Source of the DNA: JAWCQZ01 sp038869515 [NCBI: Halobacteria archaeon]
GTDB lineage: Archaea; Halobacteriota; Syntropharchaeia; JACQPP01
Direction: 5' to 3'
DNA: 64,000 nt
NCBI GenBank assembly: GCA_038869515.1
Contig: JAWCQZ010000010.1
Span: 1-64,000 of the forward strand
Shown here: piece after piece, positions 49,500-63,902 of the stretch
Numbering within the stretch: the stretch's first letter is position 1
How the letters are laid out: every line of letters begins with the position of its first letter
Translations under genes and position numbers: made by a program
The notes under the pieces: generated by a model
Told to the model about the DNA's origin: nothing
The model's database searches: none
The model's input: the letters and a program-made list of their open reading frames with translations, nothing else

Positions 49500-49619
49500 C
49501 TATCCCGGCTCGTTCTCCACACGCACCAAGGTCGCCTCGGCGATGTTGGCGGCCCCGTAGCCGATGCGCCTCCCGGAGCGGCCGATGCGGGGGCGGGTGA
49601 GCCGGGGCTGAGGCGTCAT
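49500..49619 (-). CDS. 39-residue basic peptide, coupled to RMD1-like gene
   Basis: The frame starts with ATG overlapping the RMD1-like stop (ATGA) and reads MTPQPRLTRPRIGRSGRR then IGYGAANIAEATLVRVENEPG. The tight coupling and non-repetitive sequence suggest a real small gene. The function is unknown. Confidence 0.45.
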   Translation of the reverse strand: MTPQPRLTRPRIGRSGRRIGYGAANIAEATLVRVENEPG

Positions 49620-50584: not shown

Positions 50585-50621
50585 CTCCACAGGTGGACGG
50601 GGCAGGCCTTCAACGTTCCAC

Positions 50622-50640
50622 CGTCCCGGCCGGGGTGACG
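50622..50640 (-). promoter_or_regulatory. Operator-like palindrome, RMD1-like promoter (19-nt variant)
   Basis: CGTCCCGGCCGGGGTGACG resembles TGTCACC-N6-GGTGACA with one base less. Its near edge is 11 nt from the TATA centre (about 50611), the same geometry as the other copies. Confidence 0.45.
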
Positions 50641-50644
50641 AGCC

Positions 50645-52174
50645 TCAGTGACCCGCGGCCGAGGTCCCGCCGGGGGTCACGGCCTTGTAGACCGCGGGAT
50701 TCTCCGGCCCCTCGACCTCAATGAATCCGACGGCCCCCTTGTCGAGGGCCCGGGTCAGGGAGTGGTCCACCAGGATGTAGCGTCCGGGGACGTCGAGGGC
50801 GAACTCCACGGCCGCAGCCCCGCCTGCGGGGACCGTGGTGGTCTGGACGTCCCGGATGGGGTCCTTGAGGGCCCCCTCGGGGTAGACCTTGTCGAAGATT
50901 TCACCGATGACGTGGAACGACGAGGGCAGGAAGGCCCCGACCCCCACGTAGATGCGGACCCTCTCCCCGACCTTCGCCTTCAGGGCGTTGGCGCCGGTCA
51001 GCGCGGCCACCTTGCCGTTGAATGTCACGTACTCGGGGTGCTCCAACTGCATCTTCTCACCGCTGAAGGGCTGGAGCCCCTTCTCGCCCCGCTTGCCTTC
51101 GGTGTACCACTCGCCCTGGACGACGTAGAACTCGCGGTCCACCGACGGCAGCCCCTCCTTCGGCTCCACGAGAATCATCCCGTAGAGGCCGTTGGCCACG
51201 TGGCTCGGGATGTGGGGCGTTGCGCAGTGGTAGATGTAGATGCCGGGGTTGACCGCCTTGAAGGTGAAGACCCTCTCCTCGCCCGGCTTGGCCTGGGTCA
51301 AGACCGCGCCGCCGCCGGGGCCGGTCACCGCGTGGAGGTCGATGGAGTGGGGCTGGGTGCTGTCGGCGGCGTTCTTCAGGTGGAACTCCACCGTGTCCCC
51401 CTCCCGGACCCGCAGCATGGGGCCGGGGACCGTCCCGTTGTAGGTCCAGTAGCGGTAGTGGACACCGTCGGCCATCTCCCCGACCACCTCCCGGACCTCG
51501 AGGTCGATGCGGACGGTGGCGGGCTCCTTGCGGGTGATGGGCGGAGGGACGTCATCGCCCCGGCGGACCACGTCGGCGGAGGGGCCGGTGTAGGGCCCGG
51601 CGGCCGCGGTCTTCGGGACGGAGGGGGCGGATGTCGCCGTGGCGGGGGCGGCCCCCTGGACGACGATTTTGCCCTTCATGCCCGCTTCGTAGTGGCCCGG
51701 GATGTGGCAGCCCGCCTCGTAGGTCCCGGCCCTGAGTTCGATGACCGGGCTCTCCTGGGTCTTTCCGGCGTCGATGTTCTCGATGTCGACCAGCACGCCC
51801 GGCGTCACCACCCCGTGCTTGTCGCCGCCCGCGGCCATCGCCTTCTTGTGGGCGGCGACAGCCTCGGCCTTCTGCGCCTCGGAGTAGAGGACGAACTCGT
51901 GGGGCGCCACGCCTTTGTTGGTGACGACGAACTTCACCTTGCCGGGGTTCAGCGTGACGTCGGGCGTGATGGCGAATTCACTGAGCTCGATGGCGACCAC
52001 CTGCACCCCGTCCACCACCCTGACGTTCGTGGAGACCGGCCCGGGAGCCGGGGGCGCGGCCGGGGGGGCGGCCCCGGAGGGGGTCGTGGCGGTGGGGGGC
52101 GCTGTGCAGCCCGAGACCAGGAGGGCGGCGGCGAGCAGGGCGGCCGGCGGAAGGAGGCGCAGCCGATTCATCAT
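50645..52174 (-). CDS. nirK: Copper nitrite reductase with N-terminal cupredoxin, lipoprotein
   Basis: NirK reduces nitrite to nitric oxide outside the cell. The 509 residues start with a lipobox (LLVSGC). A blue-copper domain follows (about 48-175: PHEFVLYSE, AGCHIPGHYEAGMKG), then the two-domain NirK. The T1 site is IYHCATPHIPSHVANGLYGM. T2 and catalytic residues lie in PHSIDLHAVTG, SSFHVIGEIFD and ILVDHSLTRA. The extra cupredoxin may be a tethered electron donor. The promoter CCTTATGG (52197-52204) carries an operator at 52212-52231. Confidence 0.93.
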   Translation of the reverse strand: MMNRLRLLPPAALLAAALLVSGCTAPPTATTPSGAAPPAAPPAPGPVSTNVRVVDGVQVVAIELSEFAITPDVTLNPGKVKFVVTNKGVAPHEFVLYSEAQKAEAVAAHKKAMAAGGDKHGVVTPGVLVDIENIDAGKTQESPVIELRAGTYEAGCHIPGHYEAGMKGKIVVQGAAPATATSAPSVPKTAAAGPYTGPSADVVRRGDDVPPPITRKEPATVRIDLEVREVVGEMADGVHYRYWTYNGTVPGPMLRVREGDTVEFHLKNAADSTQPHSIDLHAVTGPGGGAVLTQAKPGEERVFTFKAVNPGIYIYHCATPHIPSHVANGLYGMILVEPKEGLPSVDREFYVVQGEWYTEGKRGEKGLQPFSGEKMQLEHPEYVTFNGKVAALTGANALKAKVGERVRIYVGVGAFLPSSFHVIGEIFDKVYPEGALKDPIRDVQTTTVPAGGAAAVEFALDVPGRYILVDHSLTRALDKGAVGFIEVEGPENPAVYKAVTPGGTSAAGH

Positions 52175-52211
52175 GGCTGCTTCTCGGCCCGCGGGCCCAT
52201 AAGGCTTCCAT

Positions 52212-52231
52212 CGTCACTCGGGGAAGTGACA
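52212..52231 (-). promoter_or_regulatory. Operator, nirK promoter
   Basis: CGTCACT-CGGGGA-AGTGACA, a 7-6-7 palindrome 11 nt upstream of the TATA centre of nirK. Confidence 0.65.
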
Positions 52232-52404
52232 AGTTGCCCTCCTCCCCGGACCCTTCGGACCTTTCGGCTCGCTGCATGCCGCTTCCGGGAGACATCGGGA
52301 CCGGTCCGGGGCCGTCCGGCCCATCCTTCGGCCGCGACGGTGCCCTTCATGCCCCGCTACCGGCAGGGCGGAGGGCATTTAAGCGGAGTTTCGCACCTCT
52401 CTCC

Positions 52405-52698
52405 ATGCCCGAAAAGGCCTCCATGGAGTGCGCCTTCTGCAAGGGCCCCGTGGGCTTCGACCAGCTCTTCACCTTCATCAAGGCGGGCCCCGTCCACTTC
52501 GACTGCTTCCGCAAGGATGCGGAGGGGCGCAAGGCCCCGAAAGTCCTCGCGGACCTCCTGGAGGCCGAACTCAAACTGCTGGTGGCCTACAAGGTCGCGG
52601 CCAAGTCGGCCGACGGGGACCTGAAGGCCCTCTTGGAGGCCCAGGGGAAGGACGCGGAGAGGCACGCCGCCCTGCTGACCAAGCGCCTCTCGGGCTGA
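52405..52698 (+). CDS. DUF2175-like small zinc protein
   Basis: The 97 residues contain MECAFCKGPVGFDQLFTFIK and GPVHFDCF (Cys-x2-Cys, His-x2-Cys), the zinc site of the archaeal DUF2175 family, then a helical tail. ATG 52405 is set by ATTTAAG (52377-52383), 25 nt upstream. No convincing copy of the shared operator is present. It is convergent with the USP gene at 52703. Confidence 0.8.
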   Translation: MPEKASMECAFCKGPVGFDQLFTFIKAGPVHFDCFRKDAEGRKAPKVLADLLEAELKLLVAYKVAAKSADGDLKALLEAQGKDAERHAALLTKRLSG

Positions 52699-52702
52699 CC
52701 CC

Positions 52703-53173
52703 TCACTTCACCACCAGGACCGACACCTTGGCCTCGTGGACCACGGCGCCGGAGACGCTGCCGAGGAAAAGGCGGCCGATGCCCGAGAGCCCCCGGGAGC
52801 CCACGACCAGCAGGTCGAACTTCCCCTTCTCGGCGAACTTGAGAATTTGGGTGGGGACGTGCCCCTCCTGGATTCGGGTCTCAGCCTCCACCTTCTGCCG
52901 CCGCGCCAGGTCGGCCACCCGGTCCAGCACCTTGCGGGCCTCCGCCAAGAGGTGCTGGCGGAGGTCCTCACTGTAGTCGAAGGCCCCTCCCCCCGCCATG
53001 AAGACCCCCGCGTTGTAGACCTGCGCCGGGACGTGGACCACCGAGACGAAGGTGAGGGAGGCCCCGGTCTCCCGGGCGAGGGAGACGGCCGCCGCCGCAG
53101 CCCGGACCGCGGGCTCCGAGCCGTCCACGGCGGCGAGGATGCTCCGGAATGAGGAGGTCTTGGGGGCGGCCAT
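52703..53173 (-). CDS. Universal stress protein
   Basis: The 156 residues form one UspA domain with ILAAVDGSEPA at the start and the ATP-binding loop VVGSRGLSGIGRLFLGSVSGAVV. The central loop (about residues 55-68) is longer than in its paralogs. It begins 1 nt after the 55-residue membrane gene, in one operon. A stretch of 132 nt is identical to the USP gene at 60782. Confidence 0.92.
   Translation of the reverse strand: MAAPKTSSFRSILAAVDGSEPAVRAAAAAVSLARETGASLTFVSVVHVPAQVYNAGVFMAGGGAFDYSEDLRQHLLAEARKVLDRVADLARRQKVEAETRIQEGHVPTQILKFAEKGKFDLLVVGSRGLSGIGRLFLGSVSGAVVHEAKVSVLVVK
52737..52868. repeat. 132-bp identical tract, copy 1
   Basis: Identical base for base to 60816-60947. It covers the C-terminal ATP-binding part of two USP genes whose remaining sequence differs strongly. 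Confidence 0.85.
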
Positions 53174-53174
53174 C

Positions 53175-53342
53175 TCAGGTCCGGATTCGCGCCACAGCGG
53201 CGAGCAGGACCATGAGGAAACCCACGATGACCGCCGCGGCGGCCACAGCCAGCAGGAGGAGACTGTCGAGGCCCAAGTCCTCCCCCGGGAGGGCGTGGAC
53301 CGGGTCGGCGGTCCGGTCGCGGAGAATCGTCTCCATGGTCAT
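53175..53342 (-). CDS. Small single-pass membrane protein
   Basis: The 55 residues have one strong transmembrane helix (SLLLLAVAAAAVIVGFLMVLLAAVA) and a short charged N-terminus. ATG 53342 is 25 nt from CCTTATGG (53363-53370), above which an operator lies at 53378-53397. It leads the operon with the USP at 52703, perhaps as a membrane partner. Confidence 0.65.
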   Translation of the reverse strand: MTMETILRDRTADPVHALPGEDLGLDSLLLLAVAAAAVIVGFLMVLLAAVARIRT

Positions 53343-53377
53343 ATCTGAGTTCCCGGGAATCTCCATAAGGACTTCTC

Positions 53378-53397
53378 CGTCACCGGTGAGAGTGACA
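53378..53397 (-). promoter_or_regulatory. Operator, 55-aa/USP operon
   Basis: CGTCACC-GGTGAG-AGTGACA, near edge 11 nt from the TATA centre (about 53367). Confidence 0.65.
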
Positions 53398-53405
53398 CCC
53401 CGCCC

Positions 53406-53660
53406 TCACCCGTGGGGACGCCCGGGGGTGCGGCGTGCGCGACCTTCCGGGAAGGCGTTCCGGGCCAGGCTCCGGAGACCGGTGCCGAGGAGCGCGAGGC
53501 CCGCTCCGAGGCCCGCGACCTGGAACAGGAGGAAGGGGGCCCCACTCTCCACCGGGGCCTGGAGCCCTTTGGCGAGGGCGGAGGCCGCCAGCCCCGCCAG
53601 GGCCAGGCCGAGAACCACGAGAAGCCCATCGGCCGCGTCCTGCGAAGGGGCGCCCTCCAT
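53406..53660 (-). CDS. Small two-helix membrane protein
   Basis: The 84 residues have two hydrophobic helices (GLLVVLGLALAGLAASALAKG; FLLFQVAGLGAGLALLGTGL) and a basic tail. The ATG at 53660 is 27 nt from TATA AGTTATCG (53683-53690), with an operator at 53698-53717. The same frame stays open upstream to an ATG at 53885, so a longer 159-residue form cannot be excluded. Confidence 0.6.
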   Translation of the reverse strand: MEGAPSQDAADGLLVVLGLALAGLAASALAKGLQAPVESGAPFLLFQVAGLGAGLALLGTGLRSLARNAFPEGRARRTPGRPHG

Positions 53661-53697
53661 CCGCCTACGGCACCCTCCCGCCCGATAACTCCGGCTG

Positions 53698-53717
53698 TGT
53701 AACCGGCAGGGGTGACA
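53698..53717 (-). promoter_or_regulatory. Operator, 84-aa membrane gene
   Basis: TGTAACC-GGCAGG-GGTGACA, near edge 11 nt from the TATA centre (about 53687). Confidence 0.65.
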
Positions 53718-53881
53718 AAACTCCTGCCCCCCGGCCGGGTCCCCCGTGGCGCCGATGGGGGCCCGGGCCGCACGCACCCGGAGAAAGGCGCGAAGGGCGG
53801 CGACGGGGCGGAGCCATTTCTGCCAGCGGGCCCAGGTGAAGGCGGTGTCGAAGGCCGCCGCCAGGGCGATGCCCGGCGCAA

Positions 53882-54040
53882 TCATGGCGCGCCTCCCGCC
53901 CGCGGCATCGGGAGCCCGTGGGAAGCGTCCATCCGCCGGAACAGGAGGCAAAGGGGGCCCAGGAGGACCGGCGCCGCCAGGAGGAATGGGGCGGCGATGG
54001 GCCGCAGGACGCGGGTCGCCGCCCCGGCGAGCCTCGCCAT
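53882..54040 (-). CDS. Small membrane protein, tentative
   Basis: A 52-codon minus-strand frame reads MARLAGAATRVLRPIAAP, then a hydrophobic helix (FLLAAPVLLGPLCLLF) and a polar tail. Its stop overlaps an ATG at 53885 (ATGA) that opens into the 53406 frame. The coupling makes it plausible, but the length and composition leave doubt. Confidence 0.35.
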   Translation of the reverse strand: MARLAGAATRVLRPIAAPFLLAAPVLLGPLCLLFRRMDASHGLPMPRAGGAP

Positions 54041-54129
54041 CCGGGGGTTCGGGCCACGGTCCCTCGCCCCCTTTTTCCCGCGTCGCCTTATGCCGGTTTC
54101 AGCGGGAAGATGGGCAGCCCCTCAGGAAT

Positions 54130-55434
54130 CTACGTAGGGGACCCCTTCGGGACGAAGAGCCGGGAGGCGAGGAGCCCCAGGGCCACCATCCCCAAGCCGA
54201 AGCTGGCCCCGTGCCACCCGGTGCAGAGGAGGAGAGCGAGGCAGGTGGCCGCCCCCGCGGCGGGCAGGAGGGCGCGCTTCCCGCTGCCCGGGGCCTCTCC
54301 CCTCCGCCAGAGCACCAGGAGGGCGAGGTTCACCATGGTGAAGAGAAGGAGGACCGCCCCGTTGCTCAGTTCGGCGACGGTGGTCAGGTCCCCCAGAAGG
54401 GCGAAGCCGGCGGCCAGGAGGGCGGCGGCGACGGTGGCGGCCCAGGGGGTGCGGCGGCGGCCCACCCTCCCGAGCCACCGGGGGAGGGCGCCCGCCTGCC
54501 CCATCCCATAGAGGTTCCGCGAGACCGAGAGCATCATCAGGAGGACCGTGTTCGCGGTGGCGGCGAGGGCGAGGAGCACCAGGAGGAGTCCCGTCCGGGG
54601 ACCCGCCACTGTGCCCACCATCAGGGCCAGGGGCGAAGCGCTTCCTTCGAGTTGTTGCCAGGGGACCGCGCTGACCACCGCGACCGCCACCAGGATGTAG
54701 ATGGCCGTGGTGATGGCGACGGCGGTCAGGATGGCCCGCGGGAGGACCCGCTCGGGCTGGCGGGCCTCCTCCGCCATGTTGGCCAGCCCTTCGAACCCCA
54801 GGTAGGCGAAGAAGATGAGAGCCGCGGCCCCGCCGATGCCCGCGAGCCCGTGGGGCATCTCCAGGTAGTCCGCCTCCCCCCAGCGGGGCAGGCCGAAGGC
54901 GATGACCAGCAGGAGCCCGAGCAGTTCGACCAGGGTGAAGGCCACCGCGAACCCGACGGACTCCCGGATGCCGGCCCAGAGGAGGAGGCCGCACAGCCCG
55001 ATGAGGAGGAGCGCGCCCGCAGCGAGAGGGAGGGGGAGGAGGACCTGGAGGTAGCCCGCGAATCCCAGGGAAATCGCTGCGATGGCCACCACGTTGGAGG
55101 CCGACATGACCCACCCTCCGATGAATCCGGCTCGCATCCCGAAGGCCGCCCGGAGATACTGGAACTCGGCCGCGTTCCGGGGGTGGAGGGCGGAGAGGCG
55201 GGCGTAGGAGTGGGCCGTGAGCGCCGAGACGACTCCGGCGGCGAGGAACGCGAGCCAGAGCGCCCCGCCCGCCCTCCCTGCGGCGGGCCCGATGAGGGCG
55301 TAGATGCCGGCGCCCAGGATGACCCCGACCCCGGAGAGGGCGACGCCCCAGAAGCCGAGGCCGCGGCGGAGGCCGGGGGAGGAAGTGGAGCCCTCCGGAA
55401 CGGCGGTCCCGCCTGCCTCAGCGGCCGACCCCAT
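54130..55434 (-). CDS. APC-family amino acid permease
   Basis: The 434 residues form about 12 transmembrane helices. VGVILGAGIYALIGPAAG in helix 1 is the amine-binding Gly-rich motif of the APC superfamily, with FFAYLGFEGLANMAEEARQP near residue 210. The start is ATG at 55434 sharing one base with the AMP phosphorylase stop, or GTG at 55437 in a GTGA overlap. It is the last gene of the operon from 60060 and may import amino acids or amines. Confidence 0.88.
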   Translation of the reverse strand: MGSAAEAGGTAVPEGSTSSPGLRRGLGFWGVALSGVGVILGAGIYALIGPAAGRAGGALWLAFLAAGVVSALTAHSYARLSALHPRNAAEFQYLRAAFGMRAGFIGGWVMSASNVVAIAAISLGFAGYLQVLLPLPLAAGALLLIGLCGLLLWAGIRESVGFAVAFTLVELLGLLLVIAFGLPRWGEADYLEMPHGLAGIGGAAALIFFAYLGFEGLANMAEEARQPERVLPRAILTAVAITTAIYILVAVAVVSAVPWQQLEGSASPLALMVGTVAGPRTGLLLVLLALAATANTVLLMMLSVSRNLYGMGQAGALPRWLGRVGRRRTPWAATVAAALLAAGFALLGDLTTVAELSNGAVLLLFTMVNLALLVLWRRGEAPGSGKRALLPAAGAATCLALLLCTGWHGASFGLGMVALGLLASRLFVPKGSPT

Positions 55435-56981
55435 CACCGCTCCAGGATGAAGGGGCGCGGGTGGGGGACCCGCGCCGGAATCTTGTCAAGGAGCATCTTC
55501 TGCTCCAGCCCCCGGGCCACCACCACCGGCTCGCTCTCCGACGCCATCCGCAGGGCGTGCTCGATGCGGCTCCCGTTGCTGGAGAAGATGGAGAAGAGCA
55601 GGCCGCCCCGCTTGACGCGGGAGCCGGTCTTGACGTGGAGCAGGACCCCCGCCCCCGGGTCCCGGGGGGCCCCGGCCTCCCGGGCCACCGCCGCGATTTC
55701 GGCGTTTTTGACCCAGAGGACGCGCCCCTCCTTGGCGGCGCGGATGTTGGCGCGCCGCCCGATGGGAATGTCGGAGGGGCGGACCTCGGGGTCGCCCCCC
55801 TGCTCGGCGATGATTTGGCGCATCTTCGCCTCCGCCTTGCCGCTCCGGAGGAGCCTCCGGGCGTGCTCGGTCCCGGAGTTCCGCCCCTTGACCGTCTCAA
55901 ACAGGAGTCCCGCGAGGCGGGTCGCTTTCTCCGCCAGGTCGGCCGGACCCCTCCCGCGGAGGGCCTCCAGGGCCTCCCGGGCCTCGAGGGCGGGCCCGAT
56001 GGCGCGCCCCACAGGCTGCTCCCCCAGGGTCACGGCGCAGGCCACCTTCATTCCAAGGCGCCCCCCCAGGGCGATGAAGTCGCGGGCCAGGGCGTGGGCC
56101 TCCCCGACGGTCTTCACCTTGGCCCCCCGGCCCGTGGGGATGTCGAGGACCACGAAGCGGGCCCCCACCGCCTTCTTCTTCGAGAGGATGGAGGGCATGA
56201 GCAGGGGGTCGATGCTCAGGGGATACTCGACCTGGATGAAGAGATCGTCCGCCGGGGCGAGATTGAGGGCGCCCCCCCACGCGATGCAGCCGTGGGTCCT
56301 CTTCACCACCCGGAGAATCTCCTCCGCCTCCAGGGCCACCGGGGCGAGAACCTCGAAGCGGTCGGCGGTCCCCGCGGGGGAGGTGATGGCGCGGGAGGAG
56401 GTCTTGGGGATGGTGAGCCCCGCGGCGGCCACCAGCGGGACGACGAGCAGGGAGGTCTTGTCTCCCGGGATGCCACCGACGCTGTGCTTGTCCACCACGT
56501 TCCTCGCCGGCACCCGCAGGGTGCGCCCGGTCTCCAGCATCGCCCGGGAGAGGGCCTCGGCCTCCTCCAGGGACACGCCGTGGAGTTCCAGGGCCACCAC
56601 GAAGGCCGTCAACTCCGGGTCGGAGAGGCGGCGGTCGAGCGCGTCGCGGACGATGGTCCCCATTTTTCCCCCGTCGAGGCGGTTCCCGGTCACCTTCTCC
56701 CGGATGTAGGCCACCGACTCCGGCCTCTCCCCGTGCTCGACGGCTACGGGGTCTCCCGGCCGTAGGCCGAAGAAACGGGTGACCGCGTCGCCGGTCACCA
56801 ACTCCCCCGGCTCGGCGAACCGCGCCGTGATGTCGGCGATGGCCGAGAGGGAGCGGCCCCGGTTCCGCAACTCGACCCGGTCGAGGGCGTGGATGGAGAG
56901 GGCCTCGGCGTCCTGCTTGTTCAGGATGACGAAGGGCTTCCCCCCGGCCTCGAGGCTCAGCGGGCGGGCGCGCAGCCTCAT
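55434..56981 (-). CDS. deoA: AMP phosphorylase
   Basis: This enzyme phosphorolyses AMP (and CMP/UMP) to base and ribose-1,5-bisphosphate. The 515 residues match the archaeal family: an N-terminal extra domain (about 1-85), then KHSVGGIPGDKTSLLVVPLVAAAGL, KTSSRAITSPAGTADRFEVLAPV, VKRTHGCIAWGGALNLAPADD and the late PVGRAIGPALEAREAL. The 500-residue length separates it from bacterial thymidine phosphorylase (about 440). ATG 56981 overlaps the RuBisCO stop. Confidence 0.93.
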   Translation of the reverse strand: MRLRARPLSLEAGGKPFVILNKQDAEALSIHALDRVELRNRGRSLSAIADITARFAEPGELVTGDAVTRFFGLRPGDPVAVEHGERPESVAYIREKVTGNRLDGGKMGTIVRDALDRRLSDPELTAFVVALELHGVSLEEAEALSRAMLETGRTLRVPARNVVDKHSVGGIPGDKTSLLVVPLVAAAGLTIPKTSSRAITSPAGTADRFEVLAPVALEAEEILRVVKRTHGCIAWGGALNLAPADDLFIQVEYPLSIDPLLMPSILSKKKAVGARFVVLDIPTGRGAKVKTVGEAHALARDFIALGGRLGMKVACAVTLGEQPVGRAIGPALEAREALEALRGRGPADLAEKATRLAGLLFETVKGRNSGTEHARRLLRSGKAEAKMRQIIAEQGGDPEVRPSDIPIGRRANIRAAKEGRVLWVKNAEIAAVAREAGAPRDPGAGVLLHVKTGSRVKRGGLLFSIFSSNGSRIEHALRMASESEPVVVARGLEQKMLLDKIPARVPHPRPFILER

Positions 56982-58330
56982 CTCGGCCTCCTCCGGCCCC
57001 ACGTTTCAAGAGCCTGGCGCAGGGCGGGGGAGGAGCGGGCAGCCGACGCCGGCGAGCGCCCCTCCATGAACGCATCCACCGCGTCCCGCACCGCCCGGGC
57101 CCCCGCCCCGCTGCCCCCGGGGTGGCCGTGGACCCCGCCCCCCATCTGGAGGACGAGGTCCGCCCCCATGCGGCCGAGGAGCGGCGCCGCGATGCCGGGG
57201 TGGACGCCCCCTGATGCCACCGGCAGGACGGGGAGCATGGCCCCCCACTCCTCGCCGAGGGTGTGGAGGGAGGGGTTCGGCGGGACGCGGGAGAACCTCC
57301 GGTGGTTCCGCCGCTCGCCCGGCGGGTGGGGCGGCTCCGCGAGGTGGACCTGGATTTGACGAACCTCGCCGGGCGCGCCCTCCAGTTTCCCCGCGCCCGC
57401 GGTCCCGACGTGGAGCTGGTCGGCGCCGAGGAGGCGCGCGATTTCCGCCACCGCGAGCATGGACATGCCGTGGCGCGGGTTGCGGGTGAAGGCGGCGTGG
57501 AAGGCGCGGTGGGCGTGGATGGCGAGGCCCAGGTCGCCGCACGCCTCCCGCAGGCTGCGGAGGGCGAGCCAGCCCGTGGTCAGGATGTCCACCATGGCGT
57601 AGCGCCCCCCGTGGCGGGCGACGAGGCGGGCCCGCCGCTCCATCTCCCGGAGGGTCGGGGCGGTGACGTTGACCAGGTAGTCCTTGCGCTCGCCGGTCGC
57701 CTCCTCGATGCGGTCGCGGATGCGGAGGGCGAGGGCCACCCGCCTTCCGAAGGGGTTGAACCTCTGCCCCGCCAGGTTCTCGTCGTCCTTGAGGAGGTCG
57801 AGCCCCCCGGTCCAGATTTGGCGCGCGATCTCGCAGTGCTCCGCCGTGGTCAGCCCCACCTTGGGCTTCGGGACCGTGGCGAGGAGGGGCCGCTCGGGCA
57901 CCCCCATCGCCTTGCGGACCCCGTCAATGCCGAACCGGGGCCCCGGGAAGGAGTCGCGGAGGGCGCGCGGCCACCGGATGTCCTGGAGGCGGAGGCTCGC
58001 CACAGCCTTCATCCCGAAGACGTTGCCCGCCACCGAGGCGAGGACCTGCGGCATGTTCCCCCGCTCGAAGTGCTGCAGAGGGTAGGCGATGCGGGCCCAG
58101 ACCGCCGACCCCTCCCGCTCCATCGCGTAGACCCGCGCCCCCACCCGGCGGACGTGGGGATGGCAGAGGCCCCGGAGGCGGGTCCAGGTCCCCACCGAAC
58201 TCTCGGCCGCCACGGCCCCGGCAGCCCGCTCTGCGCTCTCTCCCCGGGGCACCCCGATGCGGAAGGAGGCGAGCAGGTCCGAAGGGCGGGGCCGGTAGCC
58301 GAGGTCCACGAAATCCTCGTAGCCCGTCAT
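56978..58330 (-). CDS. rbcL: Type III ribulose-bisphosphate carboxylase
   Basis: This enzyme fixes CO2 onto ribulose-1,5-bisphosphate made from AMP, giving 3-phosphoglycerate. The 450 residues retain TVPKPKVGLTTAEH (catalytic Lys), GGLDLLKDDENLAGQ (carbamylated Lys and metal residues), HAHRAFHAAFTRNPRHGMS, HVGTAGAGKLEG and PVASGGVHPGI with GGGVHGHPGG. All key active-site residues appear intact. It is sandwiched by ATGA overlaps between R15P isomerase and AMP phosphorylase. Confidence 0.96.
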   Translation of the reverse strand: MTGYEDFVDLGYRPRPSDLLASFRIGVPRGESAERAAGAVAAESSVGTWTRLRGLCHPHVRRVGARVYAMEREGSAVWARIAYPLQHFERGNMPQVLASVAGNVFGMKAVASLRLQDIRWPRALRDSFPGPRFGIDGVRKAMGVPERPLLATVPKPKVGLTTAEHCEIARQIWTGGLDLLKDDENLAGQRFNPFGRRVALALRIRDRIEEATGERKDYLVNVTAPTLREMERRARLVARHGGRYAMVDILTTGWLALRSLREACGDLGLAIHAHRAFHAAFTRNPRHGMSMLAVAEIARLLGADQLHVGTAGAGKLEGAPGEVRQIQVHLAEPPHPPGERRNHRRFSRVPPNPSLHTLGEEWGAMLPVLPVASGGVHPGIAAPLLGRMGADLVLQMGGGVHGHPGGSGAGARAVRDAVDAFMEGRSPASAARSSPALRQALETWGRRRPR

Positions 58331-59187
58331 CGCAGCTCCCGGAGTCTCCGGACCACGGCGGCGGGCGTCCGGACCCCCTCCTCGGTGACGACGCGGCTCA
58401 CCCGCTCCCACGGGGTGACGTCGAAAGCCGGGTTGAAGACGCGGACCCCGGCGAGGCGGCGGTGGACTTCGGCGGGGGGGCGCTCCTCGATGACCAGGCG
58501 GGGGCGACGGTCCATCTTGAGGGCGCTCGCCGCCACCACGAAGGGGCGCCCGTGCTCCCGGGCGGCGAGGGCGAGGAGGGAGGTTCCGATCTTGTTCACC
58601 ACTCCCGCCGGGGGCCGGGACCGCAGGGCGTCGGCCCCCACCAAGACCAAGTCGGCCCGGGCCACCGCCGCTCCCATCGCGGGGTCGGGGACGAGGGTCA
58701 CCGGAATCCCCGCGCTCCGCAGTTGCTTCGCGGTCCGGATGCCCTGGCGCACCGGCTCCGTCACGGTGGCGATGGCCGAGAACCTCCGGCCCCGCCTCCA
58801 CGCCTCCTCCAGGATGGAGAGGGCCTCTCCGGAGTGGCAGTGGGTCAGGACGGCGGCTCCGGTGCGGACGAGGGGTGCCCCCGAAGCGGCGACGCGCCGG
58901 GTCGAGTCGCGCAACTGCGAGAGGAGGGCGTCGAGGGAACGGAGACCGGGCTCCTCCCGGAGGGCCTCGAGGCAGTTGTGGAGGACCGCCGCCGTGGGCC
59001 GCGCCTCCTCCATGCGGCGCGCGAGAAGCCAGAACCCCCGGCCGAACCCCTCCCGCTCCGCGACCCCCCGGAGGTGGAGGAGGCTCCGGAGGGCGATCTC
59101 CTTGGCCCCCTGGATGCGAAGGTCCTTCAGCCTCCGGAGGAACGCGCCGGAACTCTCCGTCCCGCGGAAGCGGTCACCGGACGACAA
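58327..59187 (-). CDS. Ribose-1,5-bisphosphate isomerase
   Basis: This enzyme converts ribose-1,5-bisphosphate to ribulose-1,5-bisphosphate, the RuBisCO substrate. The 286 residues belong to the eIF2B/MtnA fold: LKDLRIQGAKEIALRSL, VLTHCHSGEA (catalytic Cys region), TVTEPVRQGIRTA, VLVGADALRSRPPAGVVNKIGTSLLAL and VFNPAFDVTP. The start is unclear: TTG 59187 is the best in-frame codon and overlaps the USP end by 14 nt. The protein is somewhat shorter at the N-terminus than known enzymes. Confidence 0.88.
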   Translation of the reverse strand: MSSGDRFRGTESSGAFLRRLKDLRIQGAKEIALRSLLHLRGVAEREGFGRGFWLLARRMEEARPTAAVLHNCLEALREEPGLRSLDALLSQLRDSTRRVAASGAPLVRTGAAVLTHCHSGEALSILEEAWRRGRRFSAIATVTEPVRQGIRTAKQLRSAGIPVTLVPDPAMGAAVARADLVLVGADALRSRPPAGVVNKIGTSLLALAAREHGRPFVVAASALKMDRRPRLVIEERPPAEVHRRLAGVRVFNPAFDVTPWERVSRVVTEEGVRTPAAVVRRLRELR

Positions 59188-59620
59188 GCACGGAGCCTCC
59201 GGTCCCCCGCGCCACGGCCCACGAGACCCTTCCCGGAAGCGCGGCAGGGAGGCCCGAGAGGCCCCGGCGCCCCACCACGACGAGGTCGCAGCGGAGGCTC
59301 CGTGCCGCCTTCGCGATTTCGCGGGCCGGGCTCCCCTCAACGATGCGCGTCTCCACCCGGGCCCTCCGGGAGCGCCCCCGCCCCACCCGCTCCAGGAGCC
59401 GCTCGGCCTGGCGCTTCCACTCCTCCCGGACAGACCGGAGGTAGGACTCGGGCAGGAAGTCCCGGAAGGGCCAGGGCATCTCGACGACGTGGAGCAGGGT
59501 CACGCGCGCCCCCGTGGCGGCGGCGAGGTCGAGGGCGAACCGGGCTGCCCTGATGGAGGGCTCCGAGCCGTCCACGGCGGCGAGGATTCGGCGCGGGGCT
59601 CCGCCGGGGAGCCGGCTCAT
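59174..59620 (-). CDS. Universal stress protein
   Basis: The 148 residues contain ILAAVDGSEPSIRAARFAL and an ATP-loop region VVVGRRGLSGLPAALPGRVSWAV. The last part departs from the G-x2-G-x9-G(S/T) pattern (GLPAALPGRVS), so nucleotide binding is less certain than in its neighbours. The ATG at 59620 overlaps the upstream USP stop. It is cotranscribed with the RuBisCO pathway genes. Confidence 0.88.
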   Translation of the reverse strand: MSRLPGGAPRRILAAVDGSEPSIRAARFALDLAAATGARVTLLHVVEMPWPFRDFLPESYLRSVREEWKRQAERLLERVGRGRSRRARVETRIVEGSPAREIAKAARSLRCDLVVVGRRGLSGLPAALPGRVSWAVARGTGGSVLVVR

Positions 59621-60060
59621 TTCACGACCAGCACCGACACCTTCGACTGCTGGACCAGGGCGCTGGAGACGCTCCCCAGGAACATCCGGTCCACGCCCGA
59701 GAGGCCCCGGGAGCCCACCACCAGCAGGTCGAAGTTCCCCTTGTCGGCGAAGCGGGCGATTTCAACGGCGGGGTGGCCGTGGAGAACCCTGACCTTCGCA
59801 TCCAGCCCCTCCCTGCGGGCCATGGGCACCACCCGGGCCAGGGCCTCCCGGGCCTCCTCCGCAAGATAGTCCTCCACATCCCTGGACACGGCGGTGGCGT
59901 ACTCCGGGGCGACAGGGACTTGGACCACGGTCGCCGCCGTCAAGTCGGCCCCCGACATCGCCGCAAGGTCGACGGCCACCCGGGCCGCCTTCATGGAGGC
60001 CTCGGAGCCGTCCACGGCCACGAGGACCCTCTCGAGAGGGCGGATGGGGGGTCCCTCCAT
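59617..60060 (-). CDS. Universal stress protein, first gene of AMP-pathway operon
   Basis: The 147 residues form a UspA domain with VLVAVDGSEASMKAAR and the ATP loop VVGSRGLSGVDRMFLGSVSSALV. ATG 60060 is chosen over 60090 because it lies 28 nt from the TATA-like element centred about 60088, over which an operator (60099-60118) sits at the standard distance. It leads a six-gene operon: USP, USP, R15P isomerase, RuBisCO, AMP phosphorylase, APC permease. Confidence 0.88.
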   Translation of the reverse strand: MEGPPIRPLERVLVAVDGSEASMKAARVAVDLAAMSGADLTAATVVQVPVAPEYATAVSRDVEDYLAEEAREALARVVPMARREGLDAKVRVLHGHPAVEIARFADKGNFDLLVVGSRGLSGVDRMFLGSVSSALVQQSKVSVLVVK

Positions 60061-60098
60061 GGCTTCCCCGTGGACTCCAAGCGCCTTCATCCTCTCTC

Positions 60099-60118
60099 TG
60101 TCGCGGGGCGGGGTTACA
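60099..60118 (-). promoter_or_regulatory. Operator, USP/RuBisCO/AMP operon
   Basis: TGTCGCG-GGGCGG-GGTTACA, near edge 11 nt from the presumed TATA centre (about 60088). The left half is the weakest of the set. Confidence 0.5.
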
Positions 60119-60145
60119 CCCGAGGCCGAGGTTCCAGGGCGGGGC

Positions 60146-60715
60146 TCAATCCACCCGGACCTTCCGGCTCCCGGGCTTCTTTCCCGCCCTCTCCAGGACC
60201 ACCTGGAGGACTCCGTTCTTGCAGGTCGCCTTGGCCGTCTCGGGCTTCACCGGACAGGGGAGGTCCACTTCCCGGAAATATTTCCGGTCCTTGCGGTCCA
60301 CCCGGATGGTCACCTGCTCCTCGGAGGTCTCCAGATGAACGTCCTCCTTCTCGACTCCCGGAACTTCGGCGGTCACGGTGACGGTCTTTTCGTTCTCCAT
60401 GACGTCCACCAGGGGCTCCCGGGTCCCCGGCTCCAGGGCGGTCCGCGCCGGGGAGACGAGGCCGGGGACGTTGCCGAACTCCTCGAAGCGGGGCTTGCCC
60501 CTGTCGTCCACCCGGAAGGTCCAGCCGTAGACGCAGGGGCCCCCCTTCTCCGGCGGAGGCAACTCCCCCCTCCGGGCCTGCTCCACGAGGCGGCCCATGT
60601 GGCGTCGCATGCGGGCGAACTGGTCGTCCACGTCGTCGAAGAAGTCCCGGAAGCCGAAGAGGTCGTCGAAGTCCCACTCGATGGGGCGGCTCCTGGGGAT
60701 TTTGCGTGGCTCCAT
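60146..60715 (-). CDS. Small heat-shock protein Hsp20
   Basis: This is an ATP-independent chaperone of the alpha-crystallin family. The 189 residues have an acidic, aromatic N-terminal arm (FDDLFGFRDFFDDVDDQ), a segment PCVYGWTFRVDDRGKP, the crystallin core (about 100-180: VTVTAEVPGVEKEDVHLE, KNGVLQVVLERA) and a short C-terminus. The TATA box (60739-60746) and the perfect operator at 60755-60774 lie upstream. A terminal I-x-I motif is not obvious. Confidence 0.92.
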   Translation of the reverse strand: MEPRKIPRSRPIEWDFDDLFGFRDFFDDVDDQFARMRRHMGRLVEQARRGELPPPEKGGPCVYGWTFRVDDRGKPRFEEFGNVPGLVSPARTALEPGTREPLVDVMENEKTVTVTAEVPGVEKEDVHLETSEEQVTIRVDRKDRKYFREVDLPCPVKPETAKATCKNGVLQVVLERAGKKPGSRKVRVD

Positions 60716-60754
60716 CGCCGAGGCAACTCTCCCGGAGGTCAAAAAGGGTTGCTC

Positions 60755-60774
60755 TGTCACCGGCAGGGGTGACA
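60755..60774 (-). promoter_or_regulatory. Operator, hsp20 promoter (perfect copy)
   Basis: TGTCACC-GGCAGG-GGTGACA, with fully complementary 7-nt half-sites. Its near edge is 12 nt from the TATA centre (about 60743). It also lies just past the stop of the USP gene at 60782. Confidence 0.75.
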
Positions 60775-60781
60775 GCGGGGT

Positions 60782-61189
60782 CTACCGCACGACGAGAACC
60801 GAGGTCTTGGCGTGCTGGACCACGGCGCCGGAGACGCTGCCGAGGAAAAGGCGGCCGATGCCCGAGAGCCCCCGGGAGCCCACGACCAGCAGGTCGAACT
60901 TCCCCTTCTCGGCGAACTTGAGAATTTGGGTGGGGACGTGCCCCTCCACGACCCTGGTCTTCACGGCGACCCGGTCCCTCCGCGCCTGCTCCTCGACGCG
61001 CCGGAGGGTCTTCTCCGCCATCTTGCGGACTTCGACCCGGAGCTCCTGCAGGTACTCGAGGGGCGCCCGGGGGGGCTCGACCACCATCACGGCGGTGAGG
61101 GGGGAGCCGGTGGAGCGGGCGATGCGGGCCGCCATCTTCGCGGCCCGGAGGGCGTGGGCCGAGCCGTCCACGGCCACCAGGATCTTCAT
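60782..61189 (-). CDS. Universal stress protein
   Basis: The 135 residues form a UspA domain with ILVAVDGSAHALRAAK and VVGSRGLSGIGRLFLGSVSGAVV. It is the last gene of the operon starting at 62655. The C-terminal 132 nt tract is identical to the USP at 52703 while the N-terminal parts differ, a sign of gene conversion. Confidence 0.93.
   Translation of the reverse strand: MKILVAVDGSAHALRAAKMAARIARSTGSPLTAVMVVEPPRAPLEYLQELRVEVRKMAEKTLRRVEEQARRDRVAVKTRVVEGHVPTQILKFAEKGKFDLLVVGSRGLSGIGRLFLGSVSGAVVQHAKTSVLVVR
60816..60947. repeat. 132-bp identical tract, copy 2
   Basis: Matches 52737-52868 at every base, in the same orientation, inside the two USP genes. Confidence 0.85.
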
Positions 61190-61196
61190 GGCCCCT

Positions 61197-61598
61197 CTAT
61201 CCGTGCTGGGGGACGATAAGGATTGGGGTCCGGGCGACGTTCATCACGTCCTGGGCGGTGGACTGGTGGACGAACCGATAGATGCGGTCGTACTGGAAGT
61301 GGCCCATCACGATCATGTCGTAGCCGAGGCCGAGGCGGGCGACCCGCTCGGCGAGTGCCTCGGGCCCCCCCGACACCTCCTCCACGACGAAGGTCGCCTT
61401 CACCCCCTTGTCCCGGCAGAGCTCCTCGATGCGCGCGAGCCCCCGCCGCCGGAGCTCCTTGATCTCCCGGAGCTCGCTCTTCGGGTTGAGGGTCACCACC
61501 TTGAGGCTCGCCCCGAGGGCCTTGGCGTAGGCGATGGCGGCCATCATCAGCGTGTCGGACTCCCGGAGGGGGTTCACCGGGACGAGGATCTTCTTCAT
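61197..61598 (-). CDS. UspA-like protein, divergent
   Basis: The 133 residues have the UspA fold (ILVPVNPLRESDTLMMAAIAYAKALG at the start, a YDMIVMGHFQYDRIYRFV strand-loop) but lack the G-x2-G-x9-G ATP motif, so it is of the non-ATP-binding type. It lies 7 nt upstream of the next USP and 40 nt downstream of the 113-residue gene. Confidence 0.82.
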   Translation of the reverse strand: MKKILVPVNPLRESDTLMMAAIAYAKALGASLKVVTLNPKSELREIKELRRRGLARIEELCRDKGVKATFVVEEVSGGPEALAERVARLGLGYDMIVMGHFQYDRIYRFVHQSTAQDVMNVARTPILIVPQHG

Positions 61599-61638
61599 CG
61601 GCCGCCCCGGAGAGGGGGCCGAAGAGCGACGGGGTCGC

Positions 61639-61980
61639 TCATGTCCGGCCCCTCCCGTCGCCCTCGAGGGCGGCCTTGAGCTCCTTGTGCCTCTCGGCGA
61701 TGATTTTCTTGAACGCCTTCGTCTCCTTCCGGATGCGGCGGGCGGTCTCCCTGTCCCCCAGGTAGTCCACCCAGTCGGCCACCCACCCCGCCTGCTCCTC
61801 CGTGAACTTCTCGAGGTGGGCATGGAGTTCGTCGAAGTTCCGGATGGCGAGGTCGCGGAGGTAGTAGGGCTCCCGCCCGGTGGGGTGGAACAGTTTCCGC
61901 GCCACGTCGGCGGCGGGGCGGGCCGCGGGGGGGAGGACCGAGGGGCGCGCGGCCTCCCGGGCCCTGGGGCCCTTTGCCAT
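61639..61980 (-). CDS. Helical protein of unknown function
   Basis: The 113 residues contain PYYLRDLAIRNFDELHAHLEKFTEEQAGWVADWVDYLGDRETARRI, then a Lys/Glu-rich helix. The pattern (loading helix, hydrophobic Trp pair, 'LGD..A..I') is faintly like DUF5752, a guess only. It is the middle gene of the operon and starts 1 nt after the zinc-finger gene's stop. Confidence 0.65.
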   Translation of the reverse strand: MAKGPRAREAARPSVLPPAARPAADVARKLFHPTGREPYYLRDLAIRNFDELHAHLEKFTEEQAGWVADWVDYLGDRETARRIRKETKAFKKIIAERHKELKAALEGDGRGRT

Positions 61981-61981
61981 C

Positions 61982-62134
61982 TCAGGAGACCTCCTCGAGT
62001 TCCGCCCGGGGATCGAAGAGGCGCCGGTCGAAGGTGGAGGCGCACCGACCGGAGCAGAAGTGGCGATCCCGCCACATCAGTTTCCGGGTGATGGGCTCGG
62101 AGAGAACGGACCTTCCGCACACTTCGCAGTTCAT
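61982..62134 (-). CDS. TRASH/MYM-like small zinc finger
   Basis: The 50 residues carry CEVCGRSV at the N-terminus and HFCSGRCASTFDRRLF later, a four-cysteine arrangement like TRASH or MYM metal-binding fingers. TRASH domains often sense copper or other heavy metals, of interest beside a copper enzyme island. The ATG overlaps the previous stop (ATGA). Confidence 0.7.
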   Translation of the reverse strand: MNCEVCGRSVLSEPITRKLMWRDRHFCSGRCASTFDRRLFDPRAELEEVS

Positions 62135-62655
62135 GCGCTGGCCTCCTCGCAGAGGCCCCCGCGCACTCCTGAATTCAACCGGTGGGACTCTCCAGCGTTC
62201 CGGGCCCCGGCGCACTCCCTGAGCCAGGCGTCGAGGAGCATCCAGAAGTGCTCCAGCGCCTCGGCGGCCTCGGATCCCCGGCCCGAGCGGCCGAGCCTCC
62301 AGACATCCTCCCAGAGGGCGCGGACCTCCCGGGAGGCGCCGGTGTCGGCGGGCAGGTTCTGCGCGCACCGGAGGAATTCCAGGTCCGCCTCGGCGAGGAG
62401 AAGGAGGGCGGGGCCGGATGGGAGGGTCTCTGCGAGTCCTTCCAGAAGGTCGTAGAGCACGGGGGGCGGCCCCGCCGCCAGTTGCGGGCCGGGGGAGACC
62501 CCCCCTCGCGCCTTGCGGCGCTCGCCGCCTCGCGCTGCGCGCAAGATGACTCCGCGGCCCCGGTCCGTCCGCCTTGCGGCGGGCGGGCGCCGGCGCGCGT
62601 CTCCGGCGTCTGCGCCGGGTTCCGGGAGGGGTCTTCCATGGTCCCAGTCGCCCAT
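62131..62655 (-). CDS. Unknown helical protein, operon leader
   Basis: The 174 residues have an Arg/Ala/Gly-rich disordered N-terminal third encoded by a palindrome-rich DNA stretch (about 62480-62620), and a helical C-terminal part (VLYDLLEGLAETL, AEADLEFLRCAQNL, EALEHFWMLLDAWLRECAG). ATG 62655 lies 17 nt from the centre of CCAAAAGG (62668-62675), so either a short spacing or another start is used. The operator is at 62683-62702. The function is unknown. Confidence 0.55.
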   Translation of the reverse strand: MGDWDHGRPLPEPGADAGDARRRPPAARRTDRGRGVILRAARGGERRKARGGVSPGPQLAAGPPPVLYDLLEGLAETLPSGPALLLLAEADLEFLRCAQNLPADTGASREVRALWEDVWRLGRSGRGSEAAEALEHFWMLLDAWLRECAGARNAGESHRLNSGVRGGLCEEASA

Positions 62656-62682
62656 CCTCGCGGAATTCCAAAAGGGCTCGTC

Positions 62683-62702
62683 TGTCACCGGCGAGGAGGA
62701 CA
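62683..62702. promoter_or_regulatory. Operator between trmB-like gene and stress operon
   Basis: TGTCACC-GGCGAG-GAGGACA. Its left edge is 11 nt from the minus-strand TATA-like centre (about 62672), the geometry of the other copies. Its right edge abuts the plus-strand TATA (GTTTTTC, 62704-62710), where binding should block the regulator's own promoter. Confidence 0.55.
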
Positions 62703-62732
62703 TGTTTTTCCCCCTCCCGCCGAAGGGGGTCC

Positions 62733-63902
62733 ATGGCCCCCGACTCCACTTCCCCGCTCCAGAGGCTCCTCGACCTGGGTCTCACCGAGTACCAGGCCAA
62801 GGTCTACCTCGCTCTCCTGAAGGCGGGCGCGGCGACGGCGAGCCAGTTGACCTCCTTGTGCGACGTCCCGAGGACCCGCATCTACCCGACCATGGAGCAG
62901 TTGCACGAGAAGGGGCTGGCGAACGTCCTCCCCGAGACCCCCATCCGCTACCGCCCCGTCCCCATCGGGGACTATCTGGAGCGGCGGGCGCGAGAGATGC
63001 GGAGCCGGGCCGACGAGATGGACGCCCTCAAGGGGACCTACGCCGAGGCCTTCGCCATCCGGGGCCAGGTGACCCCCGCCGCCGCGGGCTCCTTCGAGGT
63101 CCACCGGGGTCGGGACAACGCCCGGGAGAAACTGCTCCAGATGTGGGGCCGGGCGAGGAAATCGATCGAGTTCGTCGGGAGCGGCCACGCGCCCCCGCGC
63201 CTCCTGGGAAAACTCTACACCACGGCCCGGGAGCGGAGGCAGGCGGGGGCCAAGGTCCGCTTCATCTTCCCCCTCAAGACCCCCCACATGGAAAGGGTCA
63301 AGTCGGCGCTCTCCGATTTCGACGTCCGCTTCTCCCTGGAGGTCCCCCCGGTGGACGTCTGCGTCACCGACGGCCGGGAGGTCATCCTCATCCACCGCAT
63401 CCCCGACGACCCCGACCCCTACAAGGGGGAGGACGCCGCCATCTGGACCGACGACCCCGCCATCGGCGAGGCGCGGACCCGCCTCTTCGAGTCCTTCTGG
63501 AGGGACGCCTCGAGCCCGGAGCACCCGACCCTCGCCATGGTCCCCGCCGCCCTCCGGGACTGGCTGGAGGTGGAGGGGGTCAAGCCCAAGTTGGCGCTGG
63601 AGGGGATGGCCCGCAACCTCGGGACCCAGTTGGGCGCCTCGATGAAGAGCGAGACCGTCTCCGGCATCCTGAAGGAGTTGAATTCCATATTCACCGAAAC
63701 CGACATTGCCAACGTCGGCAAGGGGAAGGGGAACCGGGTCTTCGTCCGGTGCCGCTACCACGACATCACGGGAGCCTGCCCGGAGTACGACACCTTCTGC
63801 CGGACCCTCCTTCAGACGGTCTTCCGGGAGAAACTGGGCCCGGACGCCGTGAGCGAAATCACCCACACCCAGAGAGAGGGGTGCTCGGTCGAACTGAAAT
63901 AG
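62733..63902 (+). CDS. TrmB-family regulator with Cys-rich C-terminus
   Basis: The 389 residues begin with a TrmB winged helix (LLDLGLTEYQAKVYLALLKAGAATASQL, VPRTRIYPTMEQLHEKGLA), a coiled linker and a TrmB effector domain of phospholipase-D-like fold (about 115-265). A C-terminal extension (about 290-389) has four Cys within CRYHDITGACPEYDTFC and a late GCSVEL. The cysteines could sense redox state, NO or a metal. ATG 62733 is 26 nt from TATA GTTTTTC. It is the best candidate to bind the shared operator. Confidence 0.85.
   Translation: MAPDSTSPLQRLLDLGLTEYQAKVYLALLKAGAATASQLTSLCDVPRTRIYPTMEQLHEKGLANVLPETPIRYRPVPIGDYLERRAREMRSRADEMDALKGTYAEAFAIRGQVTPAAAGSFEVHRGRDNAREKLLQMWGRARKSIEFVGSGHAPPRLLGKLYTTARERRQAGAKVRFIFPLKTPHMERVKSALSDFDVRFSLEVPPVDVCVTDGREVILIHRIPDDPDPYKGEDAAIWTDDPAIGEARTRLFESFWRDASSPEHPTLAMVPAALRDWLEVEGVKPKLALEGMARNLGTQLGASMKSETVSGILKELNSIFTETDIANVGKGKGNRVFVRCRYHDITGACPEYDTFCRTLLQTVFREKLGPDAVSEITHTQREGCSVELK

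What the first reader, a model, noticed from the sequence alone, without database searches (positions are those of the whole stretch)
50622..62702. A shared palindromic operator at constant distance from TATA defines a new regulon
Seven promoters carry TGTCACC-N6-GGTGACA or close variants: 50622 (19-nt variant), 52212, 53378, 53698, 60099, 60755 and 62683. In each the edge nearest the gene is 11-12 nt upstream of the TATA-box centre, the place for an activator contacting TBP/TFB. The controlled genes are RMD1-like, nirK, two small-membrane/USP units, a USP-RuBisCO-AMP operon, hsp20 and a five-gene stress operon. I saw no matching site at the other promoters I inspected in the first 49 kb. Half-sites vary, and 50622 and 60099 are weaker.
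Basis: partly seen in the sequence, partly recalled or inferred. Interest (0 to 1): 0.92.

Follow-up and report, generated by a model that had tools for sequence, protein, structure and literature searches.

The report
Archaeal stress-gene switch, fixed TATA spacing
In an uncultured archaeon, six or seven neighbouring stress and energy gene units share one DNA switch at exactly the same distance from their TATA box, and a likely protein that works the switch is encoded beside one copy of it, so a whole stress programme can be tested.

Summary
TGTCAC-N8-GTGACA (at most 2 of 12 mismatches) occurs six times in the 64-kb window, all between 52.2 and 62.7 kb; 60 other spacers average 0.30 hits and 0 of 200 Markov-simulated windows reach six. 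A looser count is less extreme: 1 of 100 shuffles reaches six. In 7 of 7 listed promoters a TATA-like T.WW starts exactly 10 nt below the palindrome. Site 50622 is a marginal 19-nt variant.

New here: a TrmB-family gene (62733-63902, +) lies divergent from site 62683. The palindrome abuts that gene's own TATA-like element, while on the other strand it sits at the common 9-nt gap. Best explanation: a local TrmB-family activator that represses itself and helps TFB/TBP onto promoters of nirK, Usp, hsp20 and form III RuBisCO/AMP-phosphorylase units. It works like TrmBL1 or TFB-RF1, and the gene content recalls the DosR/OsdR island. The motif is not the Thermococcales TGM (N8, not N5).

Binding, sign, signal, genome-wide spread and conservation are untested: no host genome is held and I reached no close relative.

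The parts
60755..60774 (-). Operator, perfect TGTCACC-N6-GGTGACA, upstream of hsp20
53698..53717 (-). Operator upstream of a small membrane-protein ORF (53409-53660)
   Evidence: ORF by reading, no NCBIfam match
53378..53397 (-). Operator upstream of a small membrane ORF and Usp (52703-53173)
   Evidence: Usp PF00582
52212..52231 (-). Operator upstream of nirK
   Evidence: TIGR02376 over cut-off
62683..62702 (.). Operator between the minus-strand five-gene unit and the plus-strand TrmB-family gene
60099..60118 (-). Weaker operator upstream of the Usp-Usp-isomerase-RuBisCO III-AMP phosphorylase operon
50622..50640 (-). Marginal 19-nt operator variant upstream of gene 49616-50584
60740..60745 (-). 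TATA-like hexamer TTTTTG, 9 nt below operator 60755; equivalents at 50607-50612, 52197-52202, 53363-53368, 53683-53688, 60084-60089, 62668-62673
62703..62709 (+). TATA-like TGTTTTT of the TrmB-family gene, directly abutting operator 62683
   Evidence: read from the sequence
62733..63902 (+). TrmB-family protein, candidate regulator (389 aa)
   Evidence: PF01978 E 4.2e-19; NCBIfam TrmB models matched, all far below cut-off
50645..52171 (-). nirK, copper nitrite reductase with an extra N-terminal cupredoxin region
52703..53173 (-). Usp
59617..60060 (-). Usp, first gene of the RuBisCO operon (start revised)
59174..59620 (-). Usp
58327..59187 (-). IF-2B-family protein, ribose-1,5-bisphosphate isomerase-like (170.5 bits, below the 314.1 cut-off)
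56978..58330 (-). Form III RuBisCO
   Evidence: TIGR03326 over cut-off
55434..57002 (-). AMP phosphorylase
   Evidence: TIGR03327 over cut-off
60146..60715 (-). Archaeal Hsp20
   Evidence: NF041800 over cut-off
60782..62655 (-). Five-gene unit: unknown protein (frame unresolved), TRASH-like zinc protein (just below Pfam cut-offs), unknown protein, two Usp

Best explanation
The palindromes are sites for one dimeric regulator, most likely the TrmB-family protein encoded at 62733-63902. Bound just above the BRE, at a fixed 9-nt gap from TATA-like hexamers, the dimer helps TFB/TBP assemble and switches on nirK, the Usp units, hsp20, the RuBisCO III/AMP-phosphorylase operon and the five-gene unit together. 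At 62683 the same dimer covers the BRE region of its own gene on the other strand and represses it, giving a self-limiting two-way switch. Shown: repeated palindrome, fixed TATA spacing, confinement to the island within this window, and the gene arrangement. Inferred: binding by this TrmB protein (about 0.6), activation (about 0.7), autorepression, and a stress or low-oxygen signal.
For: Palindrome and spacer controls; matrix scan; T.WW at offset 10 in 7 of 7. Flanks are not conserved: mean pairwise identity 0.35 over 40 nt upstream and 0.30 over 30 nt downstream, against 0.63 and 0.71 in the half-sites and 0.67 in the hexamer, so these are not copied promoter segments. The TrmB-family gene is the only regulator I recognised in 49.5-64 kb; its TATA-like element abuts the operator. 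Its HTH scores best against the TrmBL1 model among four NCBIfam TrmB models matched (48.7 bits; 36.1, 35.9 and 23.2 for the others); the TrmBL1 half-site TATCAC (PMC4158304) differs from TGTCAC by one letter. TrmB-family proteins activate from sites above BRE/TATA and repress from sites over or below it (PMC4158304, PMC4706686, PMC9426492; passages).
Against: No binding or expression data. The four NCBIfam TrmB matches are far below their cut-offs, and the best solved-structure match is TrmBL2, not TrmBL1. The motif spacing N8 is not that of any TrmB motif quoted in the review (N3, N5, N7-8 with other half-sites). Core promoters under the sites are not significantly weaker than 28 controls (p = 0.32); p = 0.011 only against the 20 controls with a visible TATA, a choice made afterwards, and two of the seven starts in that script were off by 2-3 nt. 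The first gene at 62683 has an unresolved start. Conservation was not testable.
Confidence: 0.5

Rival explanations
1. The operator is real, but a regulator encoded elsewhere in the genome (another winged-helix family, for example Lrp, ArsR or MarR type) binds it; the TrmB-family gene is only one more target.
For: No whole genome to search; the spacing differs from the known TrmB motifs; a gene can carry a site without making the binding protein.
Against: Only the TrmB-family gene has the two-way arrangement with its own TATA against the operator; no other regulator was recognised in the island.
Confidence: 0.3
2. The TrmB-family protein binds, but as a repressor of all units, blocking TFB at the adjacent BRE; the regulon is derepressed by its signal.
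For: The palindrome ends next to the BRE position; MsvR of methanogens is a redox-released repressor at its own promoter (PMC3729527, passages); core promoters are not clearly weak (p = 0.32).
Against: The constant gap without overlap of the TATA is the published activator geometry (TFB-RF1; TrmBL1, where 2 of 3 tested upstream-site templates were activated and all nine downstream-site templates were repressed).
Confidence: 0.15
3. Chance palindromes or copies of one duplicated promoter.
For: 1 of 100 shuffles reached six loose matches; Usp coding sequences in the island are repeated, up to 85% over 213 nt; the motif was picked by eye.
Against: Spacer and Markov controls, leave-one-out ranks, unconserved flanks, constant TATA offset.
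Confidence: 0.03

Closest known systems
TrmBL1/Tgr regulon and Thermococcales glycolytic motif (PMC4158304, PMC4706686; passages seen)
   Same: TrmB-family regulator; palindrome with half-site TATCAC, one letter from TGTCAC; site above BRE/TATA activates; autoregulation proposed for this group
   Different: Spacer N5 against N8; sugar genes against stress, nitrite and nucleotide genes; the window protein is far below the TrmBL1 cut-off
TFB-RF1 of Pyrococcus furiosus (PMC5937170; passages seen)
   Same: Palindrome at a conserved distance above a weak BRE and TATA box; TFB recruitment
   Different: 13-nt motif TCTGAANTTCAGA; two operons in the ChIP data; I did not compare the proteins
OxsR of Haloferax volcanii (PMC9426492; passages seen)
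   Same: TrmB-family stress regulator, activates from sites 5' of BRE/TATA and represses from 3' sites
   Different: Single winged-helix protein; motif CGGnCGnGCG
DosR/DevR and OsdR dormancy regulons of actinobacteria (PMC5069765; passages seen)
   Same: Island of Usp genes, heat-shock and nitrogen-oxide genes with operators and the regulator gene alongside
   Different: Two-component response regulator and a different motif; an analogy of gene content only
MsvR of methanogens (PMC3729527; passages seen)
   Same: Archaeal regulator with a DNA-binding domain, cysteine-bearing C-terminal sensor and binding at its own promoter
   Different: V4R domain by Pfam, which the window protein does not match; binding boxes differ

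Membership tests
TrmB family (protein 62733-63902) | N-terminal TrmB winged-helix domain, PF01978 | tested here: met
   68.6 bits against cut-off 25.6, residues 14-78
TrmB family (protein 62733-63902) | Membership of a named subgroup (TrmB, TrmBL1, TrmBL2, haloarchaeal TrmB) | tested here: not met
   Four NCBIfam equivalogs match only the HTH, 23-49 bits against cut-offs of 500-650
Thermococcales glycolytic motif | TATCAC-N5-GTGATA | tested here: not met
   Half-sites TGTCAC with spacer N8; spacer 5 gives 0 hits in the window
Archaeal upstream activator site (TrmBL1/TFB-RF1 type) | Palindrome at a fixed place directly above BRE/TATA | tested here: met
   9-nt gap in 7 of 7
Archaeal upstream activator site (TrmBL1/TFB-RF1 type) | Weak core promoter | tested here: inconclusive
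   p = 0.32 on 28 controls; 0.011 on 20 chosen afterwards
Archaeal upstream activator site (TrmBL1/TFB-RF1 type) | Regulator binding raises transcription | not testable with these tools
   needs in vitro or in vivo assay
V4R-domain regulators (MsvR type) | C-terminal V4R domain by sequence (PF02830) | tested here: not met
   No V4R match up to E 10; profile comparison with four V4R tails gives probability 1%
V4R-domain regulators (MsvR type) | C-terminal V4R/H-NOX-like fold | tested here: inconclusive
   Model pLDDT 47.9; Foldseek has no match at E <= 0.001; 19 of 50 listed rows are H-NOX, TRAPP, PoxR/MopR or YslB chains at Z 3.8-5.2
DosR/OsdR regulon | Two-component response regulator as master | tested here: not met
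   The candidate is a TrmB-family protein; the true regulator is unproven

The most novel reading that the evidence does not exclude
A TrmB-family regulator with a V4R/H-NOX-like C-terminal sensor (redox, NO or another small ligand) runs an archaeal counterpart of the DosR dormancy island: one rigidly TATA-phased operator couples nitrite reduction, Hsp20, universal stress proteins and form III RuBisCO nucleotide salvage.
Probability: 0.2. Interest if true: 0.8.

Novelty: new variant of a known kind. Interest (0 to 1): 0.62.

Why it matters
Here operator, promoter geometry and a candidate regulator come as one set in an archaeon for which I found no genome. The switch would place form III RuBisCO and AMP phosphorylase, whose physiological role is still discussed (recalled), under the same control as Hsp20, Usp and nitrite reductase, which predicts a stress or low-oxygen role that can be tested. 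The exact spacing in unrelated promoters is also a clean case for asking how archaeal activators touch TFB or TBP.

Tried and rejected
Host and relatives. No genome is held for the window. The one genome-contig scan, with AMP phosphorylase, gave 29 loci with best-segment identities of 45-60%; 22 of 29 are titled Bathyarchaeota or Bathycorpusculum and 7 are other archaea. A tRNA-synthetase-like protein (name from reading) has a best listed identity of 50% in two strongly overlapping draws of 61 genomes from the phylum of a Bathyarchaeota-titled genome, taken to be Thermoproteota, and 47% in five further handles. I infer that the host lies outside that phylum. PCNA matches 3hi8 best among solved structures (organism recalled as Haloferax). 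Ca. Angelarchaeales (PMC9038741, passages) was considered as host and is unproven; those passages report no carbon fixation pathway in its CuMMO-encoding members. I found no way to reach Thermoplasmatota genomes, so conservation stays open.

Homologues of the regulator. Viral-contig scans with the TrmB and Hsp20 proteins confirmed no relative. The C-terminal 280 residues match weakly in 7 of 151 genomes of the first phylum, none beyond query residue 187. The whole protein matches in 178 of 195 genomes of the phylum of a Hermodarchaeota-titled genome; no listed row reaches beyond residue 306 and the list was cut. Of ten such or V4R loci read by script, four were misread as short fragments; in the other six I saw no TrmB-V4R fusion by eye.

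Motif elsewhere. Composite element in 1 of 398 genomes of the first phylum and 3 viral contigs (about chance by my own rough estimate), none followed up. In the 32 loci fetched by then, spacer 8 is not enriched (13 hits; other spacers from 0 to 15 give 4-17).

Structure. Full-length model pLDDT 39.3, not used. Tail model pLDDT 47.9. In one search the top rows are BcsD chains (8 of 50 rows, Z 5.8-6.8), 19 rows are H-NOX, TRAPP, PoxR/MopR or YslB, and 23 are other folds; the tool warns that Z under 8 may be only a common arrangement. Grouping of these folds is recalled; for V4R and Bet3 it is also the claim of PMC2253512 (passages).

Other. nirK against plasmids gave bacterial nirK at under 60% identity and did not help with lineage. 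Literature: half-site with archaea, promoter and palindrome, 0 papers; four of five terms on a Thermoplasmat- stress regulon, 0 papers; TrmB/Usp/nirK/RuBisCO terms, 47 papers of which 10 were listed, none of whose titles or abstract starts reports this regulon. This is not proof that it is absent from print. The Ptr2 paper is not held.
Full report
What is there. The window is 71.3% G+C. It is archaeal: it encodes a TFIIB-type factor and PCNA, and over my 48 gene calls the A+T content peaks at -34 to -32 and at -28 to -25 from the start codon, as expected for BRE and TATA of leaderless genes (the 48 include the site-bearing genes that were called). In the last 14 kb the genes named here run on the minus strand, except DUF2175 and the TrmB-family gene.

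The palindrome. TGTCACC-N6-GGTGACA with up to 3 of 14 mismatches has six matches, all in 52-63 kb; 1 of 100 dinucleotide shuffles reached six. TGTCAC-N8-GTGACA with up to 2 of 12 mismatches has the same six; 60 other spacers average 0.30 (maximum 2) and 0 of 200 order-3 Markov windows reach six. Left out one at a time, each site is outscored by at most ten positions, the number that the five training sites on two strands can give; in the full matrix the weakest of the six scores 16.8 and the best other place 9.9. The motif came from these sites, so the tests are not blind. Site 50622 was not in these sets: it ranks 272 as a 20-mer and first, by a small margin, as a 19-mer.

The distance. In 7 of 7 promoters the palindrome ends 9 nt before a hexamer with T first and A/T at positions 3 and 4; this pattern holds at 1.4% of window positions and reaches three of seven at no other offset of 45. 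The gap to the hexamer is constant; the hexamer-to-ATG gap varies from 28 to 34 nt with the starts I chose and would be 28, 26 and 18 with the other ATGs of three genes. Flanks are unlike one another, so these are not copies of one promoter, although the Usp genes are repeats of one another.

The genes. nirK; a small membrane ORF plus Usp; a small membrane ORF; Usp-Usp, an isomerase-like IF-2B-family gene (below its NCBIfam cut-off), form III RuBisCO, AMP phosphorylase and an amino-acid permease; Hsp20; a five-gene unit with a TRASH-like protein just under Pfam cut-offs and two Usps. Gene 49616-50584 has no Pfam match up to E 10. The operon limits are inferred from spacing.

The candidate regulator. 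A TrmB-family gene (PF01978) starts at 62733 on the plus strand, 30 nt beyond the 62683 palindrome. TGTTTTT (62703-62709) abuts the palindrome, and its first T of the T run is 28 nt before the ATG. So on the plus side the palindrome should cover the BRE, and on the minus side it has the common 9-nt gap: the layout expected of an autoregulated activator. Its HTH scores highest with the TrmBL1 model, far below cut-off; among solved structures TrmBL2 is best. The TrmBL1 half-site TATCAC is one letter from TGTCAC, but the TGM spacer is N5 (PMC4158304).

How it probably works. A dimer binds above the core promoter and recruits TFB or TBP. Precedents: TrmBL1 activated two of three tested templates with upstream sites, and TFB-RF1 has a palindrome at a conserved distance above a weak BRE. 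Repression is not excluded: the core promoters are not significantly weaker than 28 controls (p = 0.32; p = 0.011 for 20 controls chosen afterwards). The gene set recalls the OsdR/DosR islands (PMC5069765), which suggests low oxygen or energy stress as signal, by analogy only.

The sensor. The last 131 residues hold four cysteines and a predicted order helix-helix-helix-strand-strand-helix-strand-strand. The model is poor, Foldseek gives no match at E <= 0.001, and sequence tests for V4R failed. Even so, 19 of 50 listed rows are H-NOX, TRAPP, PoxR/MopR or YslB chains (Z 3.8-5.2), with eight BcsD rows on top (Z 5.8-6.8). I keep a V4R/H-NOX-like sensor as a lead, not a result.

Limits. No host genome, no close relative, no binding or expression data. 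The composite element is nearly absent from the one distant phylum searched (1 of 398 genomes), which says little about true relatives.

Noticed in passing
52709-52921, 59623-59835, 60788-61000: Repeated Usp coding sequence, 72-85% identical over 213 nt, while the promoter flanks are not alike.
   Followed up: partly
62001-62134: 44-aa TRASH-like zinc protein inside the five-gene unit, just below Pfam cut-offs.
   Followed up: no
52420-52695: DUF2175 gene on the plus strand, divergent from nirK; its own TATA-like element is far from the operator.
   Followed up: no
62490-62610: Repetitive, G+C-rich stretch where the first gene of the five-gene unit has no clear frame.
   Followed up: no
50645-52171: NirK with an additional N-terminal cupredoxin region ahead of the nitrite reductase domains.
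   Followed up: no
55434-60060: Two Usp genes head an operon with form III RuBisCO, an isomerase-like gene and AMP phosphorylase; AMP phosphorylase is 45-60% identical to the 29 loci found.
   Followed up: partly
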